Shown here: piece after piece, positions 1,876-22,767 of the stretch
How the letters are laid out: every line of letters starts with the position of its first letter
Position numbering within the stretch: position 1 is the first letter of the stretch
Virus record (IMG/VR): IMGVR_UViG_3300036817_000033
Location: 1-30,367 of that record
Length of the DNA stretch: 30,367 bases
From: a virus
Reading direction: 5' to 3' (one strand)
Notes under the pieces: generated by a model
What the model was told of the DNA's origin: nothing
Databases searched by the model: none
What the model saw: the letters and a program-made list of their open reading frames with translations, nothing else
Program-made: the position numbers and the translations under genes

Positions 1876-2115
1876 TTAACCCAACGAGATGCCTGGCGGC
1901 ACGTCTTGCACCACCTCGTCGCCGGTGAGCCTGGTGTGGACGATGCCGCCCGGCACCCGACGATCGCCGGGGTCGGGGGTGGGCACCGGCCCAAGTTCCT
2001 CGATCGTAAACGGCACCGGCGTCATCCGGTAGACGTGGCCGGTGTCGCTGAACATGTAGATTGCCCCGTCCATGGGGCAGACGGCGACGAGCTGCCCGTC
2101 GAGTGTCGCAGCCAT
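1876..2115 (-). CDS. Small beta-rich protein, function unknown
   Basis: A 79-residue ORF. The ATG at 2115 is chosen because CTGGAGG stands about 7 nt upstream; a longer in-frame ORF to 2424 would cross the facing gene and the ART gene end. Residues read as short beta strands (GQLVAVCPMDGAIYMFSDTG, then HVYRMTPVPFTIEEL) with a Pro/Asp-rich linker, and no domain is recognised. Its ribosome site overlaps, head to head, the ribosome site of the plus-strand ORF at 2140. Confidence 0.6.
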   Translation of the reverse strand: MAATLDGQLVAVCPMDGAIYMFSDTGHVYRMTPVPFTIEELGPVPTPDPGDRRVPGGIVHTRLTGDEVVQDVPPGISLG

Positions 2116-2121
2116 TTTTAA

Positions 2122-2131
2122 CCTCCAGGAG
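2122..2131. promoter_or_regulatory. Palindrome-like double ribosome-binding site CCTCCAGGAG
   Basis: The ten bases contain AGGAG reading to the right, 8 nt before the ATG at 2140, and GGAGG reading to the left, 7 nt before the ATG at 2115. The two divergent genes therefore share one compact site, only 24 nt separating their start codons. No promoter fits between them, so transcripts from both strands would have to begin elsewhere. Confidence 0.5.
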
Positions 2132-2139
2132 TTGGACCC

Positions 2140-2376
2140 ATGGTCGTTCGATGGAAAAACAAGGACGGCACCGGCGGCGTCGTCACGAACCCTTTGACGC
2201 CCGCCGAGCGCCGGTACCTCAAGAACCTCGACAATGCCGATCACGGCGGGCCTGTCGTCACTGTTGGCCCTGGTCCTGGCCCGAGAAACGCTGCGCTTGG
2301 AGTTGCCGCCACCAATCGTCGAACTGAGGCGACGAGCCGATCGGCGGCGGACGCTGTTCCTGATCCGATTGGCTGA
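2140..2376 (+). CDS. Candidate small gene on the opposite strand, overlapping the end of the ART gene
   Basis: A 78-residue ORF on the plus strand inside the minus-strand operon. The first 40 codons, which lie outside any minus-strand gene, end almost always in C or G, as the confirmed genes here do, and an AGGAG stands 8 nt before the ATG. After 2258 it runs antisense to the last 40 codons of the ART-like gene and third-position bias falls, as expected where another frame is under selection. The N-terminal half (VVRWKNKDG, LTPAERRYLKNLDNADHGG) is plausible protein; no family is recognised. It may be a moron or a chance ORF. Confidence 0.45.
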   Translation: MVVRWKNKDGTGGVVTNPLTPAERRYLKNLDNADHGGPVVTVGPGPGPRNAALGVAATNRRTEATSRSAADAVPDPIG

Positions 2377-3694
2377 CGTCCTGGTATGGTGGTTGAGGCT
2401 GCTCGGCCGCGACCGCGCTTCCATCAGATGACGACGGATTATTCATCAGCGCGCCCGCGCCAACACTAAGGCCAAGTCCGGGAATGCCGTAGCGTTTCAG
2501 GATGTCGATCATCTTGTCATTGAACATGACATAATTGCTGGTGCCGGTCCCTGCGCCGCGCGAACCCTGGTCGAGGTACTTTATGCCAGGAACGCCCTTG
2601 GAAGCCAACGCCGCAGCGGCAGCGCCTTGCGGATCAGCGTCGCCCGCCGCTCCGTAAGTCGTTGCGATCGCCGCATGGATTGAGTCTCCTCTATCGCCTG
2701 AACTAGAAGCGACGAAAGGCGGATTTGTTCTGCCCTCCAGGGAGCCGCCTTTGTCAGTCCAAAGGTCACGGATCGCCTGTTGAACATTGGGGGATTGTTC
2801 GGCGAAAGGTTTGTCCCAATCGAGCAGCTGATTGGGATCGGCGTTGAGCTGAACCTGGTACATCGAGCCGGGATTTCGACTGACGCCGCCCGCGTCCTTA
2901 AATCCCTGCAAGACCCCAATGTCGTGCTGCAGCATCGGCGCTGTTTGCTCGCTGGCTTTCGGCAATAATTGTTGAGCCCGTGCGATTGTGGCGTCCAGGT
3001 CTTCACCATTATTCCTGGCCGCGACTCGGACGTTCAAATGTTGCAGTTGGCTTTGCGGATCGAAAATTTGCCCGTCAGGGGTTCGAAGGGTGTCTGACGA
3101 TAATTGATCCCTATAGCCCCTTGCCACATCCTCATTGCCCGCGAAATAGAGCCCATGCCCATACGCTTGCGCGCCCTCGCCGGTGCCGATCTTGCTGATG
3201 TCGAACTGATCGAACTGGTACGGACTGCCGTGGTAGGCGGTGAAACCGGGCGGCGCAGCTGATGGAGTCGCTTCGCCCACCGGGTGAGGCGTCGGAAGGT
3301 TCGGCACGCCTGTGCCGGGGCCTTCGACTGATCCTGGTTCGGATCTCGCGGCCAGGGTGCTGGCGACGCTGGCGTCATCCTCGGCAGCGTGGCCGCCCTT
3401 CTTCAGCCGACGCGCGCCGATCGCCAACGGAGCCGCCGCCACCTCGGGGTTATGCGCGAGGCCCCCACGCGGTTCATCGAGTATCCCGGTGATCGCGCGA
3501 CCGAACCCTTCGGGGTCAGGGAACCCCGGCACCTTGCTTGCGCCCCAACCAGCCGCATTACCGGCAGCTTCCGTGCCCGCGCCGTAGAGGCCGCCAGCAA
3601 CCGTCCTCGGGTCGACCGGGAACAGGTCATTGAGAAAGCCTCGGCTGGGAGGCGGCGTCGGCCGGTAAGGCGAGCCCGGCAGCGGGTCAGCCAT
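2258..3694 (-). CDS. Phage ADP-ribosyltransferase-like (ART, polyvalent-protein type) virion-linked protein
   Basis: A 478-residue protein. Residues 152-190 (AYHGSPYQFDQFD, then GHGLYFAGN) and 367-402 (GVPGIKYLDQGSRGAGTG, NYVMFNDKMIDIL) carry the pattern of ART domains found in phage polyvalent and MuF-associated proteins. Such enzymes transfer ADP-ribose from NAD to host proteins. His155 and Tyr183 fit the H-Y-E triad; the third position appears to be Asn387 (NYVMF where PARP-type enzymes have EY..Y), so activity is uncertain. Residues 1-150 are Pro/Gly/Ala-rich and contain GFLNDLF (19-25), a motif shared with neighbouring genes. A GGAGG lies 8 nt before the ATG, and the gene overlaps the previous one by 8 nt. 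Base composition over the ART core (about 2690-3110) is visibly more AT-rich than flanking genes, suggesting acquisition. By position it should be made late and could enter the host with the DNA. Confidence 0.75.
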   Translation of the reverse strand: MADPLPGSPYRPTPPPSRGFLNDLFPVDPRTVAGGLYGAGTEAAGNAAGWGASKVPGFPDPEGFGRAITGILDEPRGGLAHNPEVAAAPLAIGARRLKKGGHAAEDDASVASTLAARSEPGSVEGPGTGVPNLPTPHPVGEATPSAAPPGFTAYHGSPYQFDQFDISKIGTGEGAQAYGHGLYFAGNEDVARGYRDQLSSDTLRTPDGQIFDPQSQLQHLNVRVAARNNGEDLDATIARAQQLLPKASEQTAPMLQHDIGVLQGFKDAGGVSRNPGSMYQVQLNADPNQLLDWDKPFAEQSPNVQQAIRDLWTDKGGSLEGRTNPPFVASSSGDRGDSIHAAIATTYGAAGDADPQGAAAAALASKGVPGIKYLDQGSRGAGTGTSNYVMFNDKMIDILKRYGIPGLGLSVGAGALMNNPSSSDGSAVAAEQPQPPYQDVSQSDQEQRPPPIGSSPQFDDWWRQLQAQRFSGQDQGQQ

Positions 3695-4115
3695 TGCTGC
3701 CGCCTCCGAACAGGTTCTTGAGCCAATCCAGGTTGCCGGTGGTGTAGATCGGCGCGCCCCGGTTTCCGACCATGCCAGCGCCCGGCGAATAGATGCCCGG
3801 CATGCCGCCAGCCTGTGGCGCTACAGCGGGGCTAGGAGCCCCGCCCAGGCCCGCGGGGCGTGGTGGAGGCAGCGGAGGCCACCAGGGCGGCGTTTGGGCT
3901 CCTGGGGCTCCTGAACGCCCCTGTTGTGGGAGGGCGGGCGGTGGCCCGGCCGCCTGACCTCGGAACGGGTTTACCGGCGGCAAAGGCGTCGGCGGCGCGG
4001 GAGCGTTGTAGTCCTGCCCGACCTCGGTCGGCAGTTGCTGCGCGCCCGGCAGCTGCATCGGCGGCCCAGGCTTGGTCGGGTCGGGCATCATCTTGCCGCT
4101 TTTGTTGACCGCCAT
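3687..4115 (-). CDS. Proline-rich late protein with C-terminal WLKNLF motif
   Basis: A 142-residue protein, the ATG at 4115 chosen because it follows the stop of the SleB gene by one base (TGAGATG). It is almost entirely low-complexity: PPTPLPPVNPFRG, QTPPWWPPLPPPRPAGLGG, then a Gly/Pro segment. It ends NLDWLKNLFGGGSNG. Both the PPTPxPPVNPFR module and the terminal WLKNLF recur in the double-hydrolase gene at 4921. No enzyme domain is visible; it is likely an extended linker or adaptor protein of the virion. Gene order between two wall hydrolases and the ART protein suggests a shared complex. Confidence 0.6.
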   Translation of the reverse strand: MAVNKSGKMMPDPTKPGPPMQLPGAQQLPTEVGQDYNAPAPPTPLPPVNPFRGQAAGPPPALPQQGRSGAPGAQTPPWWPPLPPPRPAGLGGAPSPAVAPQAGGMPGIYSPGAGMVGNRGAPIYTTGNLDWLKNLFGGGSNG

Positions 4116-4116
4116 C

Positions 4117-4722
4117 TCAAGGCCCCTGGCTGACGAGAGTGGGATTGTAGCCTGGACCCGCAGGTCCAGTGCCGACAAACCGTTGACCGCCGATCGTCAC
4201 ATCGTTTGCCTGGGCGAGCGGCGCGGCCCACGGCGGCGGACGGCGGCCGGGCATCGAGGCTGGCGCGTAATAGTGGGTCGCGCCGCCGGTCGGGTCGGGG
4301 ATCAGCCCGGCGGAAACCTTGTCGACGAGGTCGCCGATCTGAGCGTATTGCGGCGAGTTCGGCGCGAGACTGTGCGTGGTGGCGCTACTCTCGGCGACGC
4401 CAGGCGGGTTCCAAACCGAAAACTGATGGTACTGCGAGCCCGGCTTGACCGGCGCTGTCACCACGCCGGAAACCCCATCGCCATAGCCCCCACTGGCCAC
4501 GCGGTTCATGATCACCTGCGCCACGCCCGCCTGCCCGAGCTGCGGCTGGTTGCCTGCTTCACCGGCAATGGTGCGGATCATCATGTCCCGGTCCTGCGGC
4601 GACAGCGTTCCCTGAGCGCCGCCAGGCGGCGCAGCGAATTGGTTGGGCGTCGGCATGGCGTTCGGCGGCCATGAATTGGCGGCGATCTGACCAAGCGCCT
4701 GCGGGACTGTTGGGTCAGCCAT
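4117..4722 (-). CDS. SleB-type cell wall hydrolase (Hydrolase_2 family)
   Basis: A 201-residue protein. From about residue 40 it follows the SleB/CwlJ hydrolase pattern: RDMMIRTIAGEAGNQ with the predicted catalytic Glu55, GVAQVIMNRVASGGYGDGV, the HQFSVWN segment, and GGATHYYAP near residue 150. These enzymes cleave the glycan strands of peptidoglycan, mostly as lytic transglycosylases. There is no signal peptide, so it acts either from the virion at entry or with a holin at lysis. AGGTGA lies 5 nt before the ATG. It is a paralogue of the N-terminal domain of the gene at 4921, only one small gene away, so a local duplication is likely. Confidence 0.85.
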   Translation of the reverse strand: MADPTVPQALGQIAANSWPPNAMPTPNQFAAPPGGAQGTLSPQDRDMMIRTIAGEAGNQPQLGQAGVAQVIMNRVASGGYGDGVSGVVTAPVKPGSQYHQFSVWNPPGVAESSATTHSLAPNSPQYAQIGDLVDKVSAGLIPDPTGGATHYYAPASMPGRRPPPWAAPLAQANDVTIGGQRFVGTGPAGPGYNPTLVSQGP

Positions 4723-4725
4723 GGA

Positions 4726-4917
4726 TCACCTACCCAACGGCGTCGGCTGTTGAAAAAGCTGGTTCACCCAACTCATCTTTTGCATGCCCTGGCCCGGCGC
4801 ATAGGTCGGCGTCGCCACATAGGTCACCGGCGGCAAGCCGACCGGCGGCGTCGGTGGAACTACAGCTAGGGAAGCGGCTGTCGCCGGAACTGAAACGGCG
4901 GCGTTATTCCTGGCCAT
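4726..4917 (-). CDS. Small proline/valine-rich protein with WVNQLF motif
   Basis: A 63-residue ORF lying between the two SleB-family genes, 3 nt from each. It is made of V/P/T/A repeats (VVPPTPPVGLPPVTYVATPTY), then SWVNQLFQQPTPLGR at the C-terminus. The PPTPPV module and the W-V-N-Q-L-F sequence link it to the genes at 2258, 3687 and 4921. It has no catalytic motif or membrane segment. Third codon positions are G/C-rich and it fills the gap exactly, so I take it as real. The likely role is a small structural adaptor in the virion. Confidence 0.55.
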   Translation of the reverse strand: MARNNAAVSVPATAASLAVVPPTPPVGLPPVTYVATPTYAPGQGMQKMSWVNQLFQQPTPLGR

Positions 4918-4920
4918 GGG

Positions 4921-6438
4921 TCACCCGAACAGACGATTGATCAACCCGGTGACCAGGTCAGGTGGTCGCGGGGGTGGCGTCGGTGGGTTTCGAAGGTCGA
5001 TCTGTCCAACGCGGAATGGGTTGACCGGCGGCGTCGGGGGGTTGTTGACGTCGTAAATAAGCCCGGTCTGCGCTGGCGCTGGCCAGGGGAGCGGATTGTT
5101 CCGGTCGATCGGTGTTGTCGCGCCATCATCCTGCACGGTTGCAGGAGCGGGGGCCGGTGCCGGTGCCGGTGCTGGCGCGGGGGCCGGTGCTGGCGCAGCT
5201 GCAGGGGCGGGCGCGCCTGGCGCGGCCCCACCCCCGCCAAGGTTGAGGCTGGTGAACATCTGCGGCCTGGGGCCGCCCTGCGTCGTCGTGCCAGTGTTGA
5301 GTTGGAACTTGGCGTTCGGATCAGGCGCGCCAAGCGTGGGGGCGGGCGCAGGCGTGGATGATCCAGCGCCTGGCAATGGCGACGGCGCATAGGGGGCCTC
5401 CATCGGCTTCGGCGCAGCTGGCGTGGCTGCAGGCACGCTGGAGCTGTAACCATAGGCGCTCGGCACTGGGGGCACGTCGGCACTCCCGAGCCCGTGGCTC
5501 ATGGCGTTGGGGATCAGAGCGCGTTGCGCGGGCGTCAAGCCGTTCGCCCAGTCGCCGCCGCCCATCGGCACGTTGCCGGTATCGAAGTGCATGAGATCGG
5601 TCGCGCCATAGACGCCGCCAGGTCCGGTCTTGCCGCCGAAGTAGCCGCCCCAGCGGATCGGCGCGCCACCATTGGCGACGTTCAACTGGTGGACCCTCTG
5701 GGCGAATTGTTCGTAAGTCGCGAAATTGGCTTCGTTCTGGTAGTTCGCCAAAGGCTTGCCGCTCGGGTCGATCAGCTGGATGTCGAGCGCCTTGCCCTGA
5801 CCGTGAAAGCGCGGATCGCCAGCGCGGAAGCCCGACGTCATCTGCGCCGACCAACCCGGCGGCAGGTATTGGGTCGCCTGCTTGACCGTGTCGAGCAGAT
5901 TTGGGTCGACACCCTGTGCCACCGCGTTCGGCGCGACCGAGAACCTGACCTGGCCGGAAGCCGTCTCGGGCGGCCTGTAGCTGGTCAACGCGGTGCCCCC
6001 AGTCGAGGCTGGGGTCAGCGGCACGGTCATGAAAACGTGGTCGCCGATCCGGCGCACGTTGGTGCCCTGGTTCGCCCATTGCGGCGTGCCCTCAACCGCC
6101 TGCGGATTAAAGAAATGCGTCGCCCCTTGCGTGTTGTCGGGGTCAGCGCCGGTGCCGAACACGTTGTCGACCACCTGACCAATACGCTGGTAGGTCGGGT
6201 CATTCGGGTTAGCCCCGCGCGCGAGGTCGCCAGCGGGGTTGCCAGGGTTGTAGGTCGAGAATTGCTTGGGCGCGTAAACGACGCGCCCGATCGCGCCCTG
6301 CGTCGGCCCCCAGGCTCCGCTGTCGACGCGGTTCTTGATCACATGCGCGACCCCGCGCCAGCCGTCGACGCCCTGATTGCCCGCTTCACCGATGATGGTG
6401 CGGATCACCTGATCGCGGGCTTGTGGGGTGATCGTCAC
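4921..6438 (-). CDS. Two-domain wall hydrolase: SleB-type glycan hydrolase plus M15-like peptidase
   Basis: I prefer GTG at 6438 (AGGGG 7 nt upstream) over an in-frame TTG at 6477 that lies inside a hairpin; this gives 505 residues. Residues 4-140 are a SleB domain (RTIIGEAGNQ with Glu18; GVAHVIKNRVDSG; KQFSTYN; GATHFFNP). Residues about 195-300 look like an M15 zinc peptidase (D-Ala-D-Ala carboxypeptidase/VanY-like): FHGQGKALDI gives His212 and Asp219, and TDLMHFD gives His284 and Asp286. Together they could cut both glycan and peptide bonds of peptidoglycan. A long (AP)n-rich linker follows, then PPTPPVNPFR and the terminal LINRLFG. Such long Pro/Ala tails are usual in virion proteins. It probably opens the wall during DNA entry; use as the endolysin is also possible. 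Confidence 0.8.
   Translation of the reverse strand: MTITPQARDQVIRTIIGEAGNQGVDGWRGVAHVIKNRVDSGAWGPTQGAIGRVVYAPKQFSTYNPGNPAGDLARGANPNDPTYQRIGQVVDNVFGTGADPDNTQGATHFFNPQAVEGTPQWANQGTNVRRIGDHVFMTVPLTPASTGGTALTSYRPPETASGQVRFSVAPNAVAQGVDPNLLDTVKQATQYLPPGWSAQMTSGFRAGDPRFHGQGKALDIQLIDPSGKPLANYQNEANFATYEQFAQRVHQLNVANGGAPIRWGGYFGGKTGPGGVYGATDLMHFDTGNVPMGGGDWANGLTPAQRALIPNAMSHGLGSADVPPVPSAYGYSSSVPAATPAAPKPMEAPYAPSPLPGAGSSTPAPAPTLGAPDPNAKFQLNTGTTTQGGPRPQMFTSLNLGGGGAAPGAPAPAAAPAPAPAPAPAPAPAPAPATVQDDGATTPIDRNNPLPWPAPAQTGLIYDVNNPPTPPVNPFRVGQIDLRNPPTPPPRPPDLVTGLINRLFG
5135..5220. repeat. Low-complexity (Ala-Pro)n coding repeat
   Basis: A run of degenerate GCCGGT/GCGGGG hexamers encodes an alternating Ala-Pro tract of about 25 residues in the double hydrolase. 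Such tracts form stiff extended rods and change length easily by slippage. It is a coding repeat, not a CRISPR or regulatory array. Confidence 0.8.
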
Positions 6439-6460
6439 CCAACTACCCCTGTTGGTTGTA

Positions 6461-6479
6461 AGTTGGCTTTCGGCCAACT
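6461..6479. promoter_or_regulatory. Perfect 7-bp hairpin between divergent genes
   Basis: AGTTGGC, loop TTTCG, GCCAACT. It sits in the 53-nt gap between the minus-strand hydrolase start (6438) and the plus-strand membrane gene (6492). No U-run follows on either strand, so it is more likely an operator or mRNA leader structure than a terminator. The adjoining GTTGGTTGTAAG (6451-6462) resembles a sequence in the same relative place at 18352, also between divergent genes. Confidence 0.45.
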
Positions 6480-15530: not shown

Positions 15531-16070
15531 TCAGATCACCAAGTTGCGCTTATGCTTGTTGGCGTCAGGCGTAAGGTACTGCAAATTCCACGGCACATGC
15601 AGACCGCAAAAATCGTCGCCGCCATTGAGGGGATCGATGTGGTCAACCTCAAGACCCGGCGGACAGTTCGCGTAAATCTCTCGTAACTCCGCGTGAAAAT
15701 AATCTGAAATGCCCTGCCCAACTCGATTGCGCGCCGTATGAAGCCGCTTGGTGAGCCGGTTCGCCAGACGGAGACGCTCACGGTTAGCGCGCTCCCACTG
15801 CAACGCACGCTCCTTGTTTGCCCGGTACCATTCCTTGGCCCGCTGCCGCGCCTTCTCGGCATTCTCGGGCTTGGCGCGATATGCCGCCAACTCACGTTGC
15901 ACGCGCGCCGGATCACGCGCTTTCCGCTGCCGACAGAGTTCTGCGTTGCGCCCAGGATGGGCCTCTCGCCAGGCCGCAACATAAGTTGCCCGACAAGTTC
16001 GACATTGCGCGTAGCCCGTAGCCCGCTGAGCATCAGCAAACTCACCTGAACACTTGGAACATCGAAACAT
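15531..16070 (-). CDS. HNH endonuclease with N-terminal zinc knuckles
   Basis: A 179-residue protein. Residues 4-26 hold two CxxC pairs (C4/C7 and C23/C26), likely a zinc finger for DNA binding. Residues 45-115 are a highly basic/acidic helix with repeated RANRERL-type units. The C-terminus is a standard HNH domain: CPPGLEVDHIDPLNGG (His144), then WNLQYLTPDANKHKRN (Asn162, Asn170, His173). It is one of two free-standing nucleases in the structural block and interrupts the capsid-to-adaptor order. A 11-bp inverted repeat lies just upstream, between it and the capsid stop, which is unusual in an otherwise packed operon and may give it its own expression control. Confidence 0.85.
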   Translation of the reverse strand: MFRCSKCSGEFADAQRATGYAQCRTCRATYVAAWREAHPGRNAELCRQRKARDPARVQRELAAYRAKPENAEKARQRAKEWYRANKERALQWERANRERLRLANRLTKRLHTARNRVGQGISDYFHAELREIYANCPPGLEVDHIDPLNGGDDFCGLHVPWNLQYLTPDANKHKRNLVI

Positions 16071-16130: not shown

Positions 16131-17243
16131 CTAGGCTATATCGATCACGAGAGAAGAATTACGCTGCGTGGCAACCATTTGTCCTGTAGAAGTTATACTC
16201 TTATAAAGGACGAACTGATTGGCGGGGCGCGCCGGGGTGTGATCCTTACGCCATTCCTCGGTCATCTTGGCCAAGAAAATCTTCTTCGGATCGAACCAGT
16301 AGCAACGCTTTTGCAGACCCAGGTCGTCGAGGCTCGGATCGTACTGGAACGGCGTGCCCATGTAGTTCAATTCACCCATGCTGACGTCGCGCGCGGGCGC
16401 AAAGCCGGTCATAGTGTAATTGCCGTTCGCCCGAACCTCCATTTCCATCGCGCCGATGAAGTCCGAACCGCACAGGGCCATGGTGGGTTTCCCACCATAC
16501 CGGATCAGCTGCCGATATTCGGTCTGCAGCACGGTCAGGAGCGCGCCACCATTAGCCGGATCAGAGGTGATAAGGTCGCCACCCCAAGCCCCGAGCGATG
16601 GCGTGCCGCTGACCTTGGCCCCGAACGCCGCGGTGTGGGCGCGATTGCGCCACCAGCTGTTGGCGGTCAGCGACTGATCGAGGCCGCCGATCACGCCGAC
16701 CGATGGGTCGACGCTGATCAGGTACTGCATGCCCGCGAGCGCCTTGGGGTCAGCGGTGCCGTCAGCCCAGAGCAGGCCATTCATGCCGCGCGCATATTGC
16801 TCGCCAAGCTCGAACAGCTTGTCCTGGAACAGGTTGACCAGCACCGTCTCTTCGCGGTCGGTGTGCTCGACCGTCTCCCGACCATCGGTGTCGACGACGC
16901 TGATGCCATCGATCTTCAGCTCGGTGTGGGTGAGCGTCAGACCGATGTGGTGCTCTTTCCAGGGATAGTTGCCGCGCACGATGTTGGCGGGAGTGAAGAA
17001 CCCGACCGTGTCGTTGTGCGTGTACCCCTTGACGACGTCGTTGCCCGAACCATCGCCGAACTTGCCGTGCAGCGCGACCGAGATGTTGCCCTTGCCGCCA
17101 GGGAAGGTCTTAGCGCCCGTCCCCTCGTAATATTTCAGAAGCGGCTTGTCCTGCAGCGTCTGGAAGAACTCTTCCGGCCGCGCCCAATAGTAGTCCAACG
17201 CCGCATTGGCGATGTTGGTAATTTCACCGGCTGTGAAGGCCAT
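16131..17243 (-). CDS. Major capsid protein
   Basis: A 370-residue protein following scaffold and portal, as expected for the coat protein. GGAG lies 8 nt before the ATG. Content is alpha/beta with a typical head-protein opening (EITNIANAALDYYWARPEEFF) and segments such as TVGFFTPANIVRGNYPWKEH, ETVLVNLFQDKLFELGEQYARG and QLIRYGGKPTMALCGSDF, resembling HK97-fold coat proteins of P22-like and T7-like phages: N-arm, E-loop-like beta region, then A-domain. It is the main shell protein, made in the highest amount, assembled on the scaffold. The exact subfamily cannot be set by eye. Confidence 0.85.
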   Translation of the reverse strand: MAFTAGEITNIANAALDYYWARPEEFFQTLQDKPLLKYYEGTGAKTFPGGKGNISVALHGKFGDGSGNDVVKGYTHNDTVGFFTPANIVRGNYPWKEHHIGLTLTHTELKIDGISVVDTDGRETVEHTDREETVLVNLFQDKLFELGEQYARGMNGLLWADGTADPKALAGMQYLISVDPSVGVIGGLDQSLTANSWWRNRAHTAAFGAKVSGTPSLGAWGGDLITSDPANGGALLTVLQTEYRQLIRYGGKPTMALCGSDFIGAMEMEVRANGNYTMTGFAPARDVSMGELNYMGTPFQYDPSLDDLGLQKRCYWFDPKKIFLAKMTEEWRKDHTPARPANQFVLYKSITSTGQMVATQRNSSLVIDIA

Positions 17244-18680: not shown

Positions 18681-18710
18681 AAAACCGGGGCCGAAAGGCC
18701 CCGGTTTTTT
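18681..18710. terminator. Bidirectional Rho-independent terminator
   Basis: AAAACCGGGGCC, loop GAAA, GGCCCCGGTTTT: a perfect 12-bp stem capped by a GNRA tetraloop, followed by two more T on the plus strand. It ends the plus-strand gene at 18471. Read on the minus strand the stem also ends in TTTT, directly after the portal stop codon (18709-18711), so it may also limit read-through from portal into scaffold. Confidence 0.9.
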
Positions 18711-21192
18711 AATGCGTCGGCCCGCTCAGGCGGTGCATGCCTGGCGCTGGCGTGCCCTGCGCCGGGCCTGACGGCTGACCGGGCGTCGGCGGCGGGAACG
18801 AGCCGCCTGGCCGCGGGTTCTGCGGCGCGTTCTGGTCGCCTGCCGGGGCCTGCATCTGCGGCGAGGGAGGCGTCGCCCCCTTGGCTGGCGCAGCCATCTG
18901 CCCGATGCCGGGCGGGCCTGCCCCCATGCCGCCGCCCTTCATCGCGGTGTTGAGCGCCACGATCGACGGCAGCATCGGCTTGAACGCCTGGCTAAGGTCG
19001 AGCTTGTCGTCGAGGCGGCTCAAGAGATCACGAGCCAGGAACTCGGGATCGATGCCAGGAAGCTGCATCACCAGCGGGTAAATCTTCTGCGCGTTGGCAA
19101 TCTCCTGCGCCTGGTTCGGGTTGCCCGACGAACCCGCCTCGACCTCCAGCCAAACCTCTTCGCTGATCTGTTGGCGGGTCAGTTCCGGCCACACCGCGCC
19201 GACGCCGACCACCCGCTTGACCGTGGACTCGCTGACATTGGCGAGTAGGAGCTGCCCGCCGTAGCGCGCCAGATGGGTCAAAAGGTCGTCGAGGTCATCG
19301 ACGTTCGAGTCCATGGTGGTCGTGCGCGACGCCTCGGCGATCTGCGACTGGGTCGCGGTGTCGGAATTGGTCGGCCCCATGTTCGCCTCCTGGAAGCCGA
19401 CGACGCGCAAGGTGTCATCGAAGTAGGGCGAGACGTCATAGAGCGCCGGATTGATCTCGGGGCCGGTGTACGGCTGCAGGAGATCGGTGACCTTCTGGCC
19501 TGGCTGCAGGCCATTGAGTTCGAGGATGGCGTTGTCGGGGTGGTTCTCGAGTTTCGCCATGTCGTCGGCGTCGAGCGCCCCGGCGCTGACCGCTGTCTTC
19601 GGCCTGGCGGCCTTGCGGTGCTCACGCATGCCCTGCCGAGCGCGATTGTAGTCGAGCTGCATGTTGACCATCAACCGCACGTCGCTCGGCGGGTAGATGT
19701 CGTCTTCGTGGTCGATCTCGTTGAAGGTCAGGGTGAACCACGGCCAGAACCGTTCGAGCGGCGTGTCGGGCGCGCCAGGCTCCTGCAGGAAGTCCTTGTA
19801 GCCGTCGCAAACGACGTACACGAGCCCGTCCTTGCGATTGTAGATCTCCCACACGCAGGCGCATTGCTTGTCGTCGCCGGTGCCCTTGCCTTGCCGATCG
19901 GGGGTCATCGCCATCATGCCGTCCGCCCGGGTGGCGACGTTCTGACCGCTGTCGGGCCGCCGGTAGCTGATATAGTTTTTGCCGATGTCCTTTTTATAGA
20001 TTTCTTTGATCTCATTGACGCTCAGGATGTACTCCTCGGCGACCCAGTCCGAGCCGAGAAACCCGCGCAGGTGAAGGCACTTGGTGTCGGGAATGATGGC
20101 AAAGCTCGACGGGTAGTCGAAGGTCAAGCCTTCGCGGGCGATGAATTGGCGCTCGTTCTGCAGATCCTGCACCAGGAGGGTGAGCTGCTCGGCCTCGGCC
20201 GACGTCGGGTCGTCCTCGCCATCGGCGATGTCGGCGGCCAGGCGCTCCAGGGTGCCGAGCCGCTCGGAGATGTCGCTGAGCTTGGCGACCACATCCGGCC
20301 GATCGGCCATGGCGCGCTCAAACCCGAGCTTGACGTAGGCGACCCCGACGGTCAGCGCCCGGCGCACCGTCATCTTCATCAACTGCTTGAACGGGTGCAA
20401 CTGTTGGCTGATCTCGTAGGCATAGAGCAGCTGCAGGGTGTGAGCGATCTTGTCCAGCATCGCCTCTTGCTGCTTGACCTGGGCGGCGTCCTGCATGATC
20501 GCCATGCCCTGTTGGATCGCAGGGGCAGCGGCTCCGAACGCTCCCAATGCCGCTCCTGCGGCTCCAGGAGGCGCGCCAGGGCCTCCAGGAGGCCCAGGAG
20601 GCGTTCCGGCCCCATTGGGGCCTGGCGGGGCTCCTGGAGCCCCTGGAGGCCCGCCTGGGGGCATTCCCGGCGGTGGGCCGCCCGGCGGCGCGCCCGGCAT
20701 CGGCGGCCCGCCAGCCATGCCGACGCCAGGACCGCCAGCCGCCAGACCCGCCATCGCCTGTTGAGCCGCCTGCATCAGCGACTGCAGTTGGCCCTCGGTG
20801 CCGTCCCAGATGGTGTTGAGGATCATCTCGCGGCGCTTGGCGACCGCCTTCGGGTTGCGGGCGTAGAGGAACGCCACCCGTTGCGCGACCTCGCGCAGAG
20901 TGATGTTGGCCACATAACGCTTGTCCTTGATGTTCTTCGACCACTGCCGCCCGGCGCAGAAGTCTTGGTCCTCGCGCATGCGCTCGAATGCGGGCTTCCA
21001 GTGTTTCTTGGCGTGCTTGACCTCCTCGGTCCAGGCGTTGACCAGAGCCTTGCGTTGCTGCGGCGGGTCAGGCGGATCGCGGTCGATCATCTTCGACTGC
21101 GCCATGCCGGTCTGCAGCACGTCCTGGCCCGACACCCCCTGCGCGGGGCCGAACACCTGTTCGAGCATGGCGTCGTTAGGGTTCTGCGGCAT
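18709..21192 (-). CDS. Portal (head-tail connector) protein with collagen-like insertion
   Basis: An 827-residue protein between terminase and scaffold, the portal position. The N-terminal part (KALVNAWTEEVKHAKKHWKPA, DQDFCAGRQWSKNIKDKRYVANIT; in parts) and the core (NEIDHEDDIYPPSDVRLMVNMQ, QLDYNRARQGMREHRKAARP) match large podovirus portals, where a conserved IYPPSDVR segment precedes the stem helices. Residues 152-211 are a Gly/Pro run with many G-x-P steps (PGGPPGAPGAPPGPNG), not expected in portals. The last 80 residues are Pro/Gln/Gly-rich. It forms the ring through which DNA is packed and ejected and which nucleates procapsid assembly. Third-position bias continues through the insertion, so it appears to be translated. 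Confidence 0.85.
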   Translation of the reverse strand: MPQNPNDAMLEQVFGPAQGVSGQDVLQTGMAQSKMIDRDPPDPPQQRKALVNAWTEEVKHAKKHWKPAFERMREDQDFCAGRQWSKNIKDKRYVANITLREVAQRVAFLYARNPKAVAKRREMILNTIWDGTEGQLQSLMQAAQQAMAGLAAGGPGVGMAGGPPMPGAPPGGPPPGMPPGGPPGAPGAPPGPNGAGTPPGPPGGPGAPPGAAGAALGAFGAAAPAIQQGMAIMQDAAQVKQQEAMLDKIAHTLQLLYAYEISQQLHPFKQLMKMTVRRALTVGVAYVKLGFERAMADRPDVVAKLSDISERLGTLERLAADIADGEDDPTSAEAEQLTLLVQDLQNERQFIAREGLTFDYPSSFAIIPDTKCLHLRGFLGSDWVAEEYILSVNEIKEIYKKDIGKNYISYRRPDSGQNVATRADGMMAMTPDRQGKGTGDDKQCACVWEIYNRKDGLVYVVCDGYKDFLQEPGAPDTPLERFWPWFTLTFNEIDHEDDIYPPSDVRLMVNMQLDYNRARQGMREHRKAARPKTAVSAGALDADDMAKLENHPDNAILELNGLQPGQKVTDLLQPYTGPEINPALYDVSPYFDDTLRVVGFQEANMGPTNSDTATQSQIAEASRTTTMDSNVDDLDDLLTHLARYGGQLLLANVSESTVKRVVGVGAVWPELTRQQISEEVWLEVEAGSSGNPNQAQEIANAQKIYPLVMQLPGIDPEFLARDLLSRLDDKLDLSQAFKPMLPSIVALNTAMKGGGMGAGPPGIGQMAAPAKGATPPSPQMQAPAGDQNAPQNPRPGGSFPPPTPGQPSGPAQGTPAPGMHRLSGPTH
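20560..20739. repeat. Collagen-like Gly-Pro coding repeat within portal
   Basis: About 60 codons encode Gly/Pro-rich triplets; the plus strand shows repeated CCAGGAGG/CTGGAGGCC units. The repeat lies between residue 151 and 212 of the portal protein, inside the N-terminal region before the stem. Confidence 0.8.
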
Positions 21193-21198
21193 CGTCGT

Positions 21199-22767
21199 CT
21201 AGGTCCAGCCCCCGGTGATGCTTTCCTGCTCGCGCTCATGGCGTTTGGTCATCGCCTTGATCCAGCCGAGCGTCAGCGGCTTCGGCCCCGACTCGATCAC
21301 CTTGATCCGCCCTTTAGCGGGGATCTGCTTCATCAGCCCGAGCCCGAGCAATGACAGCGTGTCGACGAAGTCATCGTGCGCGCCATGCGGGAACTTGAGG
21401 ATCTGATCGCGCGCGTCGGCGAACCACCGGGTGAAGCGCGGGAAGTAGACCCGCCCCATGCTCATCCGGCCGTTGATCGATTGCGCGCGGGCCTGCTTGT
21501 CGGCGATCGGCGCGATCTCGTCGATCACGCAATAGATGCGCTTTTCGAGCATGCGTTTGCGCAAAAAAGGACCGACCGATTTTTGAATGACGCCCTTCTC
21601 GGCGAACCACAGCATCGGGCGATATTTCGCCATCAGGCTGATGACGACGTCGACCGAGTGATCGGACGGCATGCGCTGCCAGGTCAGGTCGGGCATGATC
21701 CACAAGTTTTCGTTCTCGTCGACGCCGACGATCATGTGGCAGGACTTGTCGTTCTCCTGGCGGGTGGCGACAGCAAAGTCCGACGCGCCATAGAAGCGCA
21801 TGCCCTCGAACGCGGGCACGTCGGTCATCTTGTTGTAGGTGCGAATGTAGTCGGACTTGAAGAACGCGCCTTCGGCTGGCGTCGGCCGACCCTGGTAAAG
21901 CGCAGTGAAGCCGCGCGGGTCGTTGCGGCGCATGTCGAAGAAGAACGGCGCGTCAAAACGGTCGGGCCAGAGGGGCTCGTCGATCTCGCGCCCGAGCGGA
22001 TCATCCTCCTCGGCGAGCGCGGGCAGGTTGATGATCCGCCAGGTCGACGCCTCCTCCTCGTGATAGTGCGCATTCATCGGGTCGAGGTGACGGCCGATCA
22101 GGTCGTCTTCGTTCCAGCGCGTGGCGATGATGATCAAAGCCGCGTCCTTGGTCATCATGCGCGAGCGAAACACGCTGGCGTACCAATTCCACACCTTGTC
22201 GCGCACGACGATCGAGTCGGCCTCCTGGCGGTTCTTGATTGGGTCGTCGAACAGATTGATGTCGCCGCCGCGGCCGGTGAGCGTGCCGCCGACGCCGACG
22301 AAGAACAGGTCGCCCCCGCCGACGATCGACAGCTTGTCTGCCGCCGCGCCGCCATAGCGCAGCTTGAGGTCGGGGAAGACGTGCTTGTACAGCGGCGACT
22401 GCATCAGCGTCTTGACGTTGCCGCCGATGTCGATCGCGTATTTGTCGTTGTAGGTCGCGACCACGACGCTCTTGTTCGGCTTGCGGCCGACGCACCAGGC
22501 TGGGAACAAGGTCGAAGCGAGGCGGGTTTTGCCATGGCGAGGCGGACAAGAGATGATCAGGCGCTTGATGCGGCCTGCCTCGACCTCCTCCAGGGCCGCG
22601 CCGATCACCCGGTGATGCTTGGCCGCCTCGTAAGCCGAGAAACGCGCGTCGGCGCGCCGGTTGGGGTCCGGTTGCATGTAGCGCGCGAACGGCACCATGC
22701 CGTCGCGCGCCTTGAGGATCGCCTTCTTGCGCTCAAGCAGAAGAAAACGTCGGTCAGCGGCGTTCAA
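21199..22767 (-). CDS. terL: Terminase large subunit (ATPase and nuclease)
   Basis: 522 residues from TTG 22767, which overlaps the previous stop (TTGA); the only later in-frame ATG is at residue 24, inside conserved sequence. ATPase: Walker A SCPPRHGKT (73-81), Walker B NLFDDP (171-176), coupling motif IIIATRWNEDD (212-222). Nuclease: YGASDFAV (Asp330), WFAEKG (Glu390), GAHDDFVDTLSL (Asp465/466), the three acidic metal-binding positions of the RNase H-like fold. It pumps DNA into the procapsid and cuts it at the end of packaging. It sits next to the portal, its docking partner. A small terminase subunit is not obvious; the acidic protein just upstream occupies that place but lacks a recognisable HTH. 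Confidence 0.95.
   Translation of the reverse strand: MNAADRRFLLLERKKAILKARDGMVPFARYMQPDPNRRADARFSAYEAAKHHRVIGAALEEVEAGRIKRLIISCPPRHGKTRLASTLFPAWCVGRKPNKSVVVATYNDKYAIDIGGNVKTLMQSPLYKHVFPDLKLRYGGAAADKLSIVGGGDLFFVGVGGTLTGRGGDINLFDDPIKNRQEADSIVVRDKVWNWYASVFRSRMMTKDAALIIIATRWNEDDLIGRHLDPMNAHYHEEEASTWRIINLPALAEEDDPLGREIDEPLWPDRFDAPFFFDMRRNDPRGFTALYQGRPTPAEGAFFKSDYIRTYNKMTDVPAFEGMRFYGASDFAVATRQENDKSCHMIVGVDENENLWIMPDLTWQRMPSDHSVDVVISLMAKYRPMLWFAEKGVIQKSVGPFLRKRMLEKRIYCVIDEIAPIADKQARAQSINGRMSMGRVYFPRFTRWFADARDQILKFPHGAHDDFVDTLSLLGLGLMKQIPAKGRIKVIESGPKPLTLGWIKAMTKRHEREQESITGGWT

What the first reader, a model, noticed from the sequence alone, without database searches (positions are those of the whole stretch)
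2258..3694. ADP-ribosyltransferase-like protein in the virion block with H-Y-N triad
His155 and Tyr183 of the ART fold are present, but the third position, normally Glu, appears to be Asn387. In PARP-type families loss of Glu often means mono-ADP-ribosylation or loss of activity. The gene is late, next to wall hydrolases, AT-richer over its core, and carries the shared LF motif, so it could be an effector injected with DNA, like T4 Alt, but of a different subfamily.
Basis: partly seen in the sequence, partly recalled or inferred. Interest (0 to 1): 0.6.

Follow-up and report, generated by a model that had tools for sequence, protein, structure and literature searches.

The report
Phage-borne ADP-ribosyltransferase with conserved H-Y-N site
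This phage carries, at a swappable spot beside its cell-wall-cutting genes, an enzyme that probably attaches ADP-ribose to bacterial molecules at the start of infection; its active site has an asparagine where relatives have glutamate, and that asparagine turns out to be fixed across a large, little-described family rather than a defect.

Summary
In detail: ORF 2258-3694 (-, 478 aa) has an ART domain (aa ~150-405) with His155, Tyr183 and Asn387. An AlphaFold2 model (pLDDT 91) is an ART fold; end points of structural alignments to tankyrase 1/2 and PARP14 put Asn387 where those enzymes have Glu1291, Glu1138 and Leu1701. Asn387 is not degenerate: in 80 phage loci found through a stretch outside the active site it is 76/76 Asn, with His 79/80, Tyr 82/82, a second (PARP1 Tyr907-like) Tyr 80/82 and a donor-loop Glu (Glu173, GEGxQ) 79/81. 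Related canonical copies lack that loop and have E/Q/V there; the H-Y-N group is a clade. So 'lost Glu' is the wrong reading: the active site is remodelled family-wide. Relatives lie in head/portal/terminase blocks of short-tailed phages. New here: in sister phages the same slot holds proteins with the same N-leader and C-tail but a different core, and the closest sister (major capsid protein 98% identical) lacks the gene. The ART looks like exchangeable cargo of a late-gene slot, probably packaged and injected. Activity, target and packaging are inferred, not shown. Not T4 Alt's (R-S-E) family. Known kind, new variant.

The parts
2258..3694 (-). ART protein, 478 aa; its start overlaps the stop of the upstream late gene
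3290..3694 (-). Conserved N-leader (aa 1-~135): PYRPTPPPSRGFLNDLFPVDPR..., shared with slot proteins of sister phages
   Evidence: 54% identity over aa 3-116 in G1185, 77% over aa 5-35 in G1181; alignment
2480..3247 (-). ART domain (aa 150-405)
   Evidence: AlphaFold2 pLDDT 91.1, pTM 0.86; ART/PARP/diphtheria-toxin-like folds and cyanophage A4 ejectosome domain
3230..3232 (-). His155, triad residue 1 (strand 1)
   Evidence: 79/80 in the neutral set
3176..3178 (-). Glu173 of the donor-loop motif GTGEGAQ, candidate relocated acid
   Evidence: 79/81; loop absent from the related canonical copies
3146..3148 (-). Tyr183, triad residue 2 (strand 2)
   Evidence: 82/82
3113..3115 (-). Tyr194, 11 residues after Tyr183, the spacing of PARP1 Tyr896/Tyr907 (numbers from general knowledge)
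   Evidence: 80/82
2534..2536 (-). Asn387, triad residue 3
   Evidence: 76/76; 157/159 in the first set; structural end points
2273..2377 (-). Conserved C-tail (aa ~440-474): PIGSSPQFDDWWRQLQAQRFSG, shared with sister slot proteins
3687..4115 (-). Pro-rich late protein ending WLKNLFGGGSNG; the match to the closest sister stops at its 3' end
4117..4722 (-). Cell wall hydrolase (Hydrolase_2)
   Evidence: PF07486, E 1.5e-13
4726..4917 (-). Small late ORF ending WVNQLFQQPTPLGR, carries the LF motif
4921..6477 (-). Cell wall hydrolase (Hydrolase_2) with Pro/Ala-rich tail ending LINRLFG
   Evidence: PF07486, E 1.3e-16
2063..3696 (.). Variable slot: this 1.6-kb stretch is replaced by 199 unrelated bases in sister phage G1178
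   Evidence: blastn breakpoints

Best explanation
The gene encodes an early-infection effector. An H-Y-N ADP-ribosyltransferase domain is held as exchangeable cargo between an N-leader and a C-tail that mark proteins of one slot at the end of the phage's late operon. Proposed steps: (1) made late with the wall hydrolases (inferred from position); (2) packed into the head or ejection apparatus, perhaps through leader and tail (inferred); (3) ejected with DNA (inferred from Alt and polyvalent-protein precedent); (4) binds host NAD+ with His155, Tyr183 and Tyr194 (inferred from fold and conservation); (5) transfers a single ADP-ribose to a host macromolecule, with Asn387 orienting the nicotinamide ribose instead of Glu and the donor-loop Glu173 or the substrate itself supplying the acid/base function (hypothesis); (6) this modifies a host factor or blocks a defence (target unknown).
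For: Fold: pLDDT 91, strands bearing H, Y and N in ART order; matches to tankyrases, PARP14 and diphtheria toxin at Z about 8, and to the cyanophage A4 pre-ejectosome protein at Z 11. Residues: H, E, Q, Y, Y, N nearly invariant in a set chosen through a region outside the active site. Separate clade with coupled GEGxQ and Asn. Context: neighbours of compact phage relatives most often match terminase, portal, scaffold and head-tail adaptor; phiGT1 gp5 lies between portal and scaffold. Slot: sister phages keep leader and tail but carry other cores; precise absence in the closest sister. Precedent: polyvalent ARTs were proposed as injected modifiers (PMC5512222).
Against: No activity or virion proteomics is at hand. 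Loss of the strand-5 acid can mean low or no transferase activity. The A4 ejectosome relative has Thr at the apparent position and may be structural. Equivalence of Asn387 with the PARP Glu rests on alignment end points, not a residue-level overlay; profile alignment with bacterial PARPs joined only the GHGLYFA motif. Z about 8 is modest. The leader/tail chassis is seen in few contigs.
Confidence: 0.56

Rival explanations
1. NAD+-binding or NAD+-cleaving enzyme that does not modify a macromolecule (NADase, or acting on NAD-derived signals or NAD-dependent immunity).
For: The nicotinamide-clamp residues are invariant while the usual acceptor-activating Glu is replaced. [quoted passage not shown]
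Against: The long insert between strands, the conserved Arg379 and the donor-loop Glu suggest a defined acceptor surface; nothing shows hydrolysis.
Confidence: 0.2
2. Catalytically dead ART fold used as a structural or ejection protein of the head.
For: The nearest solved fold is a domain of a cyanophage ejectosome protein with H-Y-T. Loss of the strand-5 Glu is often read this way.
Against: H, Y, Y, N and the donor-loop Glu are nearly invariant over very diverged sequences, unexpected for a dead site. The gene is absent from the closest sister phage, so it is not an essential structural protein there.
Confidence: 0.14
3. Late-expressed accessory gene that acts in the infected or neighbouring cell (superinfection exclusion, competition between phages) and is not packaged.
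For: Presence/absence pattern at the operon's end and a lower-GC core.
Against: Family members sit next to portal, terminase and scaffold genes in many phages; leader and tail are kept while the core is exchanged, as expected for a shared delivery chassis.
Confidence: 0.1

Closest known systems
ART-PolyVal (PF18760), ARTs of polyvalent proteins, Tox-ART-HYD2 clade (Iyer et al. 2017, PMC5512222)
   Same: H in strand 1, Y in strand 2, phage and plasmid provenance, late-gene context; 101 of 104 family members match the model at E 0.01
   Different: Asn instead of the described Asp at strand 5, a GEGxQ donor loop that canonical copies lack, a long insert; compact single-domain protein; below Pfam's cut-off
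PARP/ARTD family (tankyrases, PARP1, PARP14)
   Same: ART fold, HG[ST] motif, GxGLYFA motif, two Tyr 11 residues apart; structural Z about 8
   Different: Third residue Asn, not Glu (or the Leu/Ile of mono-PARPs); only one of 104 members reaches the Pfam PARP model at E below 0.01
T4 Alt
   Same: Functional analogy: phage ART delivered with DNA
   Different: Alt belongs to the R-S-E clade (PMC5512222); this one is H-Y-N
Cyanophage A-4L ejectosome protein (A4L_27; 9k3a chain B, residues 1420-1608)
   Same: Closest solved fold (Z 11.0, 160 residues, rmsd 5.3); a virion ejection protein
   Different: Apparent H-Y-T, no GEGxQ loop, no detectable sequence match
phiGT1 gp5 (QLB38217.1)
   Same: 40% identical ART domain with Asn, head gene block, leader plus ART plus short Ala/Gly tail
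   Different: Does not share the window protein's leader or C-tail; sits between portal and scaffold

Membership tests
ART superfamily (fold) | ART fold with triad residues on strands 1, 2 and 5 | tested here: met
ART-PolyVal PF18760 | Score over Pfam's curated cut-off (31.2 bits) | tested here: not met
   25.1-26.9 bits, only the first 46 of 140 positions
ART-PolyVal PF18760 | H in strand 1 and Y in strand 2 | tested here: met
ART-PolyVal PF18760 | Asp in strand 5 (Iyer 2017) | tested here: not met
   Asn387 at the strand's front edge; the VVFD position is Asn392 here and only 60/75 Asp in the family
PARP/ARTD | H-Y-E triad | tested here: not met
   Asn at the third place
PARP/ARTD | Match to Pfam PARP PF00644 | tested here: not met
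   No match for the window protein at E 0.01
T4 Alt (R-S-E clade) | Arg in strand 1, Ser in strand 2, Glu in strand 5 | tested here: not met
   H, Y, N instead
Alt-like virion-packaged effector (function) | Protein present in virions and delivered to the host | not testable with these tools
   Only context evidence; a table that may hold the answer for phiGT1 gp5 (Table S3 of PMC10386132) could not be opened
Polyvalent protein | Two or more effector domains in one polypeptide | tested here: not met
   One recognisable domain in 478 aa; about half of the relatives are in larger open frames
Active ADP-ribosyltransferase | NAD-dependent ADP-ribose transfer | not testable with these tools
   No assay possible

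The most novel reading that the evidence does not exclude
H-Y-N plus the near-invariant donor-loop Glu (GEGxQ) is a distinct catalytic configuration of ADP-ribosyltransferases, with the acid moved from strand 5 to the donor loop. It is used by a large phage family whose members can ride as interchangeable cargo in a late-gene slot, packaged through conserved terminal tags.
Probability: 0.33. Interest if true: 0.78.

Novelty: new variant of a known kind. Interest (0 to 1): 0.6.

Why it matters
If active, it would show how an ART works without the strand-5 acid and would give a set of phage tools that modify bacterial molecules at infection. The exchangeable core between fixed leader and tail gives a direct way to find other candidate injected phage effectors: read what sits in the slot of each sister phage.

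Tried and rejected
Direct look-up with the single protein found no relatives in viral contigs; alignment queries were needed. PDB sequence search with the family profile gave only chance hits (gp41 and other coiled coils). Profile alignment with bacterial PARPs joined only GHGLYFA and could not place strand 5, so the Asn/Glu equivalence rests on structural end points. Foldseek alone gave no PDB hit below E 0.001. The idea that Asp of VVFD is the third residue was rejected because that position varies. The idea of a decayed active site was rejected because of conservation. The Fisher value is not independent evidence, since the two traits follow one clade. A V[DE]HDPF terminal motif was not seen in the neighbours of the ART genes that bear it, so it was not claimed as a general packaging tag. 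The slot could not be read in every sister record: some contigs end before it, and wrap-around positions in others were guessed from the distance to the major capsid gene.

Full report
Observation. The window is a 30,367-base virus record. ORF 2258-3694 on the minus strand encodes 478 aa. Pfam finds only ART-PolyVal (PF18760), aa 153-196, E 3.3e-05, below the curated cut-off.

Fold. A model of aa 149-412 built on 104 relatives has pLDDT 91.1 and pTM 0.86; H and Y lie on the first and second strands and N at the front edge of the strand 238-242 of the model. VIA-align gives cyanophage A4 pre-ejectosome chain 9k3a_B residues 1420-1608 (Z 11.0), tankyrases (Z up to 8.5), diphtheria toxin (8.4) and PARP14 (8.1). 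Model residue 1 pairs with TNKS2 1025, TNKS1 1178 and PARP14 1595, and residue 258 with 1157, 1310 and 1720. If the ends are ungapped, model residue 7 (His155) falls on H1031, H1184 and H1601, and residue 239 (Asn387) on 1138, 1291 and 1701: the Glu of the tankyrases and the Leu of PARP14 (catalytic residue numbers are from general knowledge). This is strong but not a residue-level overlay.

Asn387 is a family trait. In loci fetched with a pattern that includes the second-strand Tyr, Asn is 157/159. To avoid that bias, relatives were fetched with the region between the active-site elements (patterns WDKP... and GIxGI[KR]YLD). There H is 79/80, donor-loop Glu 79/81, Gln 76/81, Tyr 82/82, second Tyr 80/82, Arg 83/87 and Asn 76/76, while the following Asp position is only 60/75. 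Among related domains gathered from the same loci, those with the GEGxQ loop have Asn in 112 of 113; those without it have E, V, Q and others, and Asn in 3 of 71. The Asn group forms one clade holding 103 of 105 Asn sequences and 1 other, support 1.0. Iyer et al. 2017 describe the polyvalent ART active site as H-Y-D; no paper found names an H-Y-N group.

Context of the family. Compact phage relatives (about 275-570 aa) have a low-complexity leader, the ART, and usually a short tail of the form ILRKYGIAGLxAGGGAAA. Neighbours of 61 such genes most often match terminase large subunit, P22- or SU10-type portal, scaffold and head-tail adaptor. In phiGT1, gp5 (40% identical domain) lies in the head block between portal and scaffold. 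Other copies are domains of large polyvalent proteins, among them a Pseudomonas plasmid protein that also bears canonical copies.

The slot. The window's block runs terminase 21199-22767, portal 18709-21192, major head protein 16131-17243..., two Hydrolase_2 proteins, and the ART last. Isolate relatives of the head genes are Microcystis phage Mae-Yong1326-1 and Rhizobium phage RHph_N65; 80 loci with related major head proteins were fetched. Of 26 longer records, G1181, G1184 and G1185 match the window protein in its leader (within aa 3-150) and, for G1184 and G1185, its tail; G1182 matches only in the tail; G1187 matches in the ART. Reading the ORFs shows the same N-terminus (PTPPPSRGF[LM]NDLFPVDP in G1181 and G1185; SSRSFLDTMFPVNP in G1184) and the same C-terminus (WW[RKQ].LQ.Q) around one core in G1181, G1184 and G1185, weakly like DUF7178 (E 0.0044, below cut-off), and the C-terminus after a second core in G1182. 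Two further contigs carry the leader motif in a polyvalent protein (L393) or the tail after the end of another core (L396). In G1178, whose major head protein is 98% identical to the window's, both hydrolases and the Pro-rich gene are present, the match stops at window position 3696, two bases before the ART start codon, and resumes at 2063; 199 unrelated bases stand in between. The ART core is lower in GC than leader and tail (57.6% against 70.5% and 63.1%). Together: an accessory cargo gene whose core is exchanged.

LF motif. WLKNLF, WVNQLF, LINRLF (C-termini) and FLNDLF (N-leader of the ART) occur in four neighbouring late proteins, against 0.14 expected. Hydrolases of sister phages also end in LxxLFP. 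A docking or packaging signal is a plausible reading, untested.

Mechanism. Shown: position, conservation, predicted fold, exchange of the core. Inferred: late expression, packaging, injection, NAD+ use, mono-ADP-ribosylation. Hypothesis: Asn387 orients the nicotinamide ribose and Glu173 or the acceptor provides acid/base help.

Limits. No assay and no proteomics; structural equivalence by end points; chassis seen in few contigs; the census of the slot is partial.

Noticed in passing
L017, L019, L026, L033, L072 (ART ORFs): A short V[DE]HDPF-like motif recurs near both ends of several ART proteins; 16 hits over all ORFs against 0.4 after shuffling. L393, a polyvalent protein with the window-type leader, also carries PVDHDPF and PVDYDPF.
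   Followed up: partly
L370, L373, L374 (G1181, G1184, G1185), slot gene: A different core, weakly like DUF7178, sits between the same leader and tail; a candidate injected effector of unknown function.
   Followed up: partly
L371:6764-9109 (G1182) and L396: Another core type with the same C-tail and no confident Pfam or PHROG match.
   Followed up: partly
L366:8090-15415 (Microcystis phage Mae-Yong1326-1): The late block of the isolate relative ends in a 2441-aa protein with LPD1, annotated as peptidoglycan transglycosylase.
   Followed up: no
L180 (Anabaena phage A-4L), A4L_27 C-terminus: A solved ejectosome protein ends in an ART-like domain (apparent H-Y-T) without detectable sequence similarity to this family.
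   Followed up: partly
G193:C54:25593-26036 (L183): A weak PARP (PF00644) match lies inside a 4771-aa open frame in a Bacteroidales genome.
   Followed up: no
window:13980-14366 and 15531-16070: An HNH endonuclease and an endonuclease VII-like gene stand among the late structural genes, like the HNH genes near the head genes of phiGT1.
   Followed up: no
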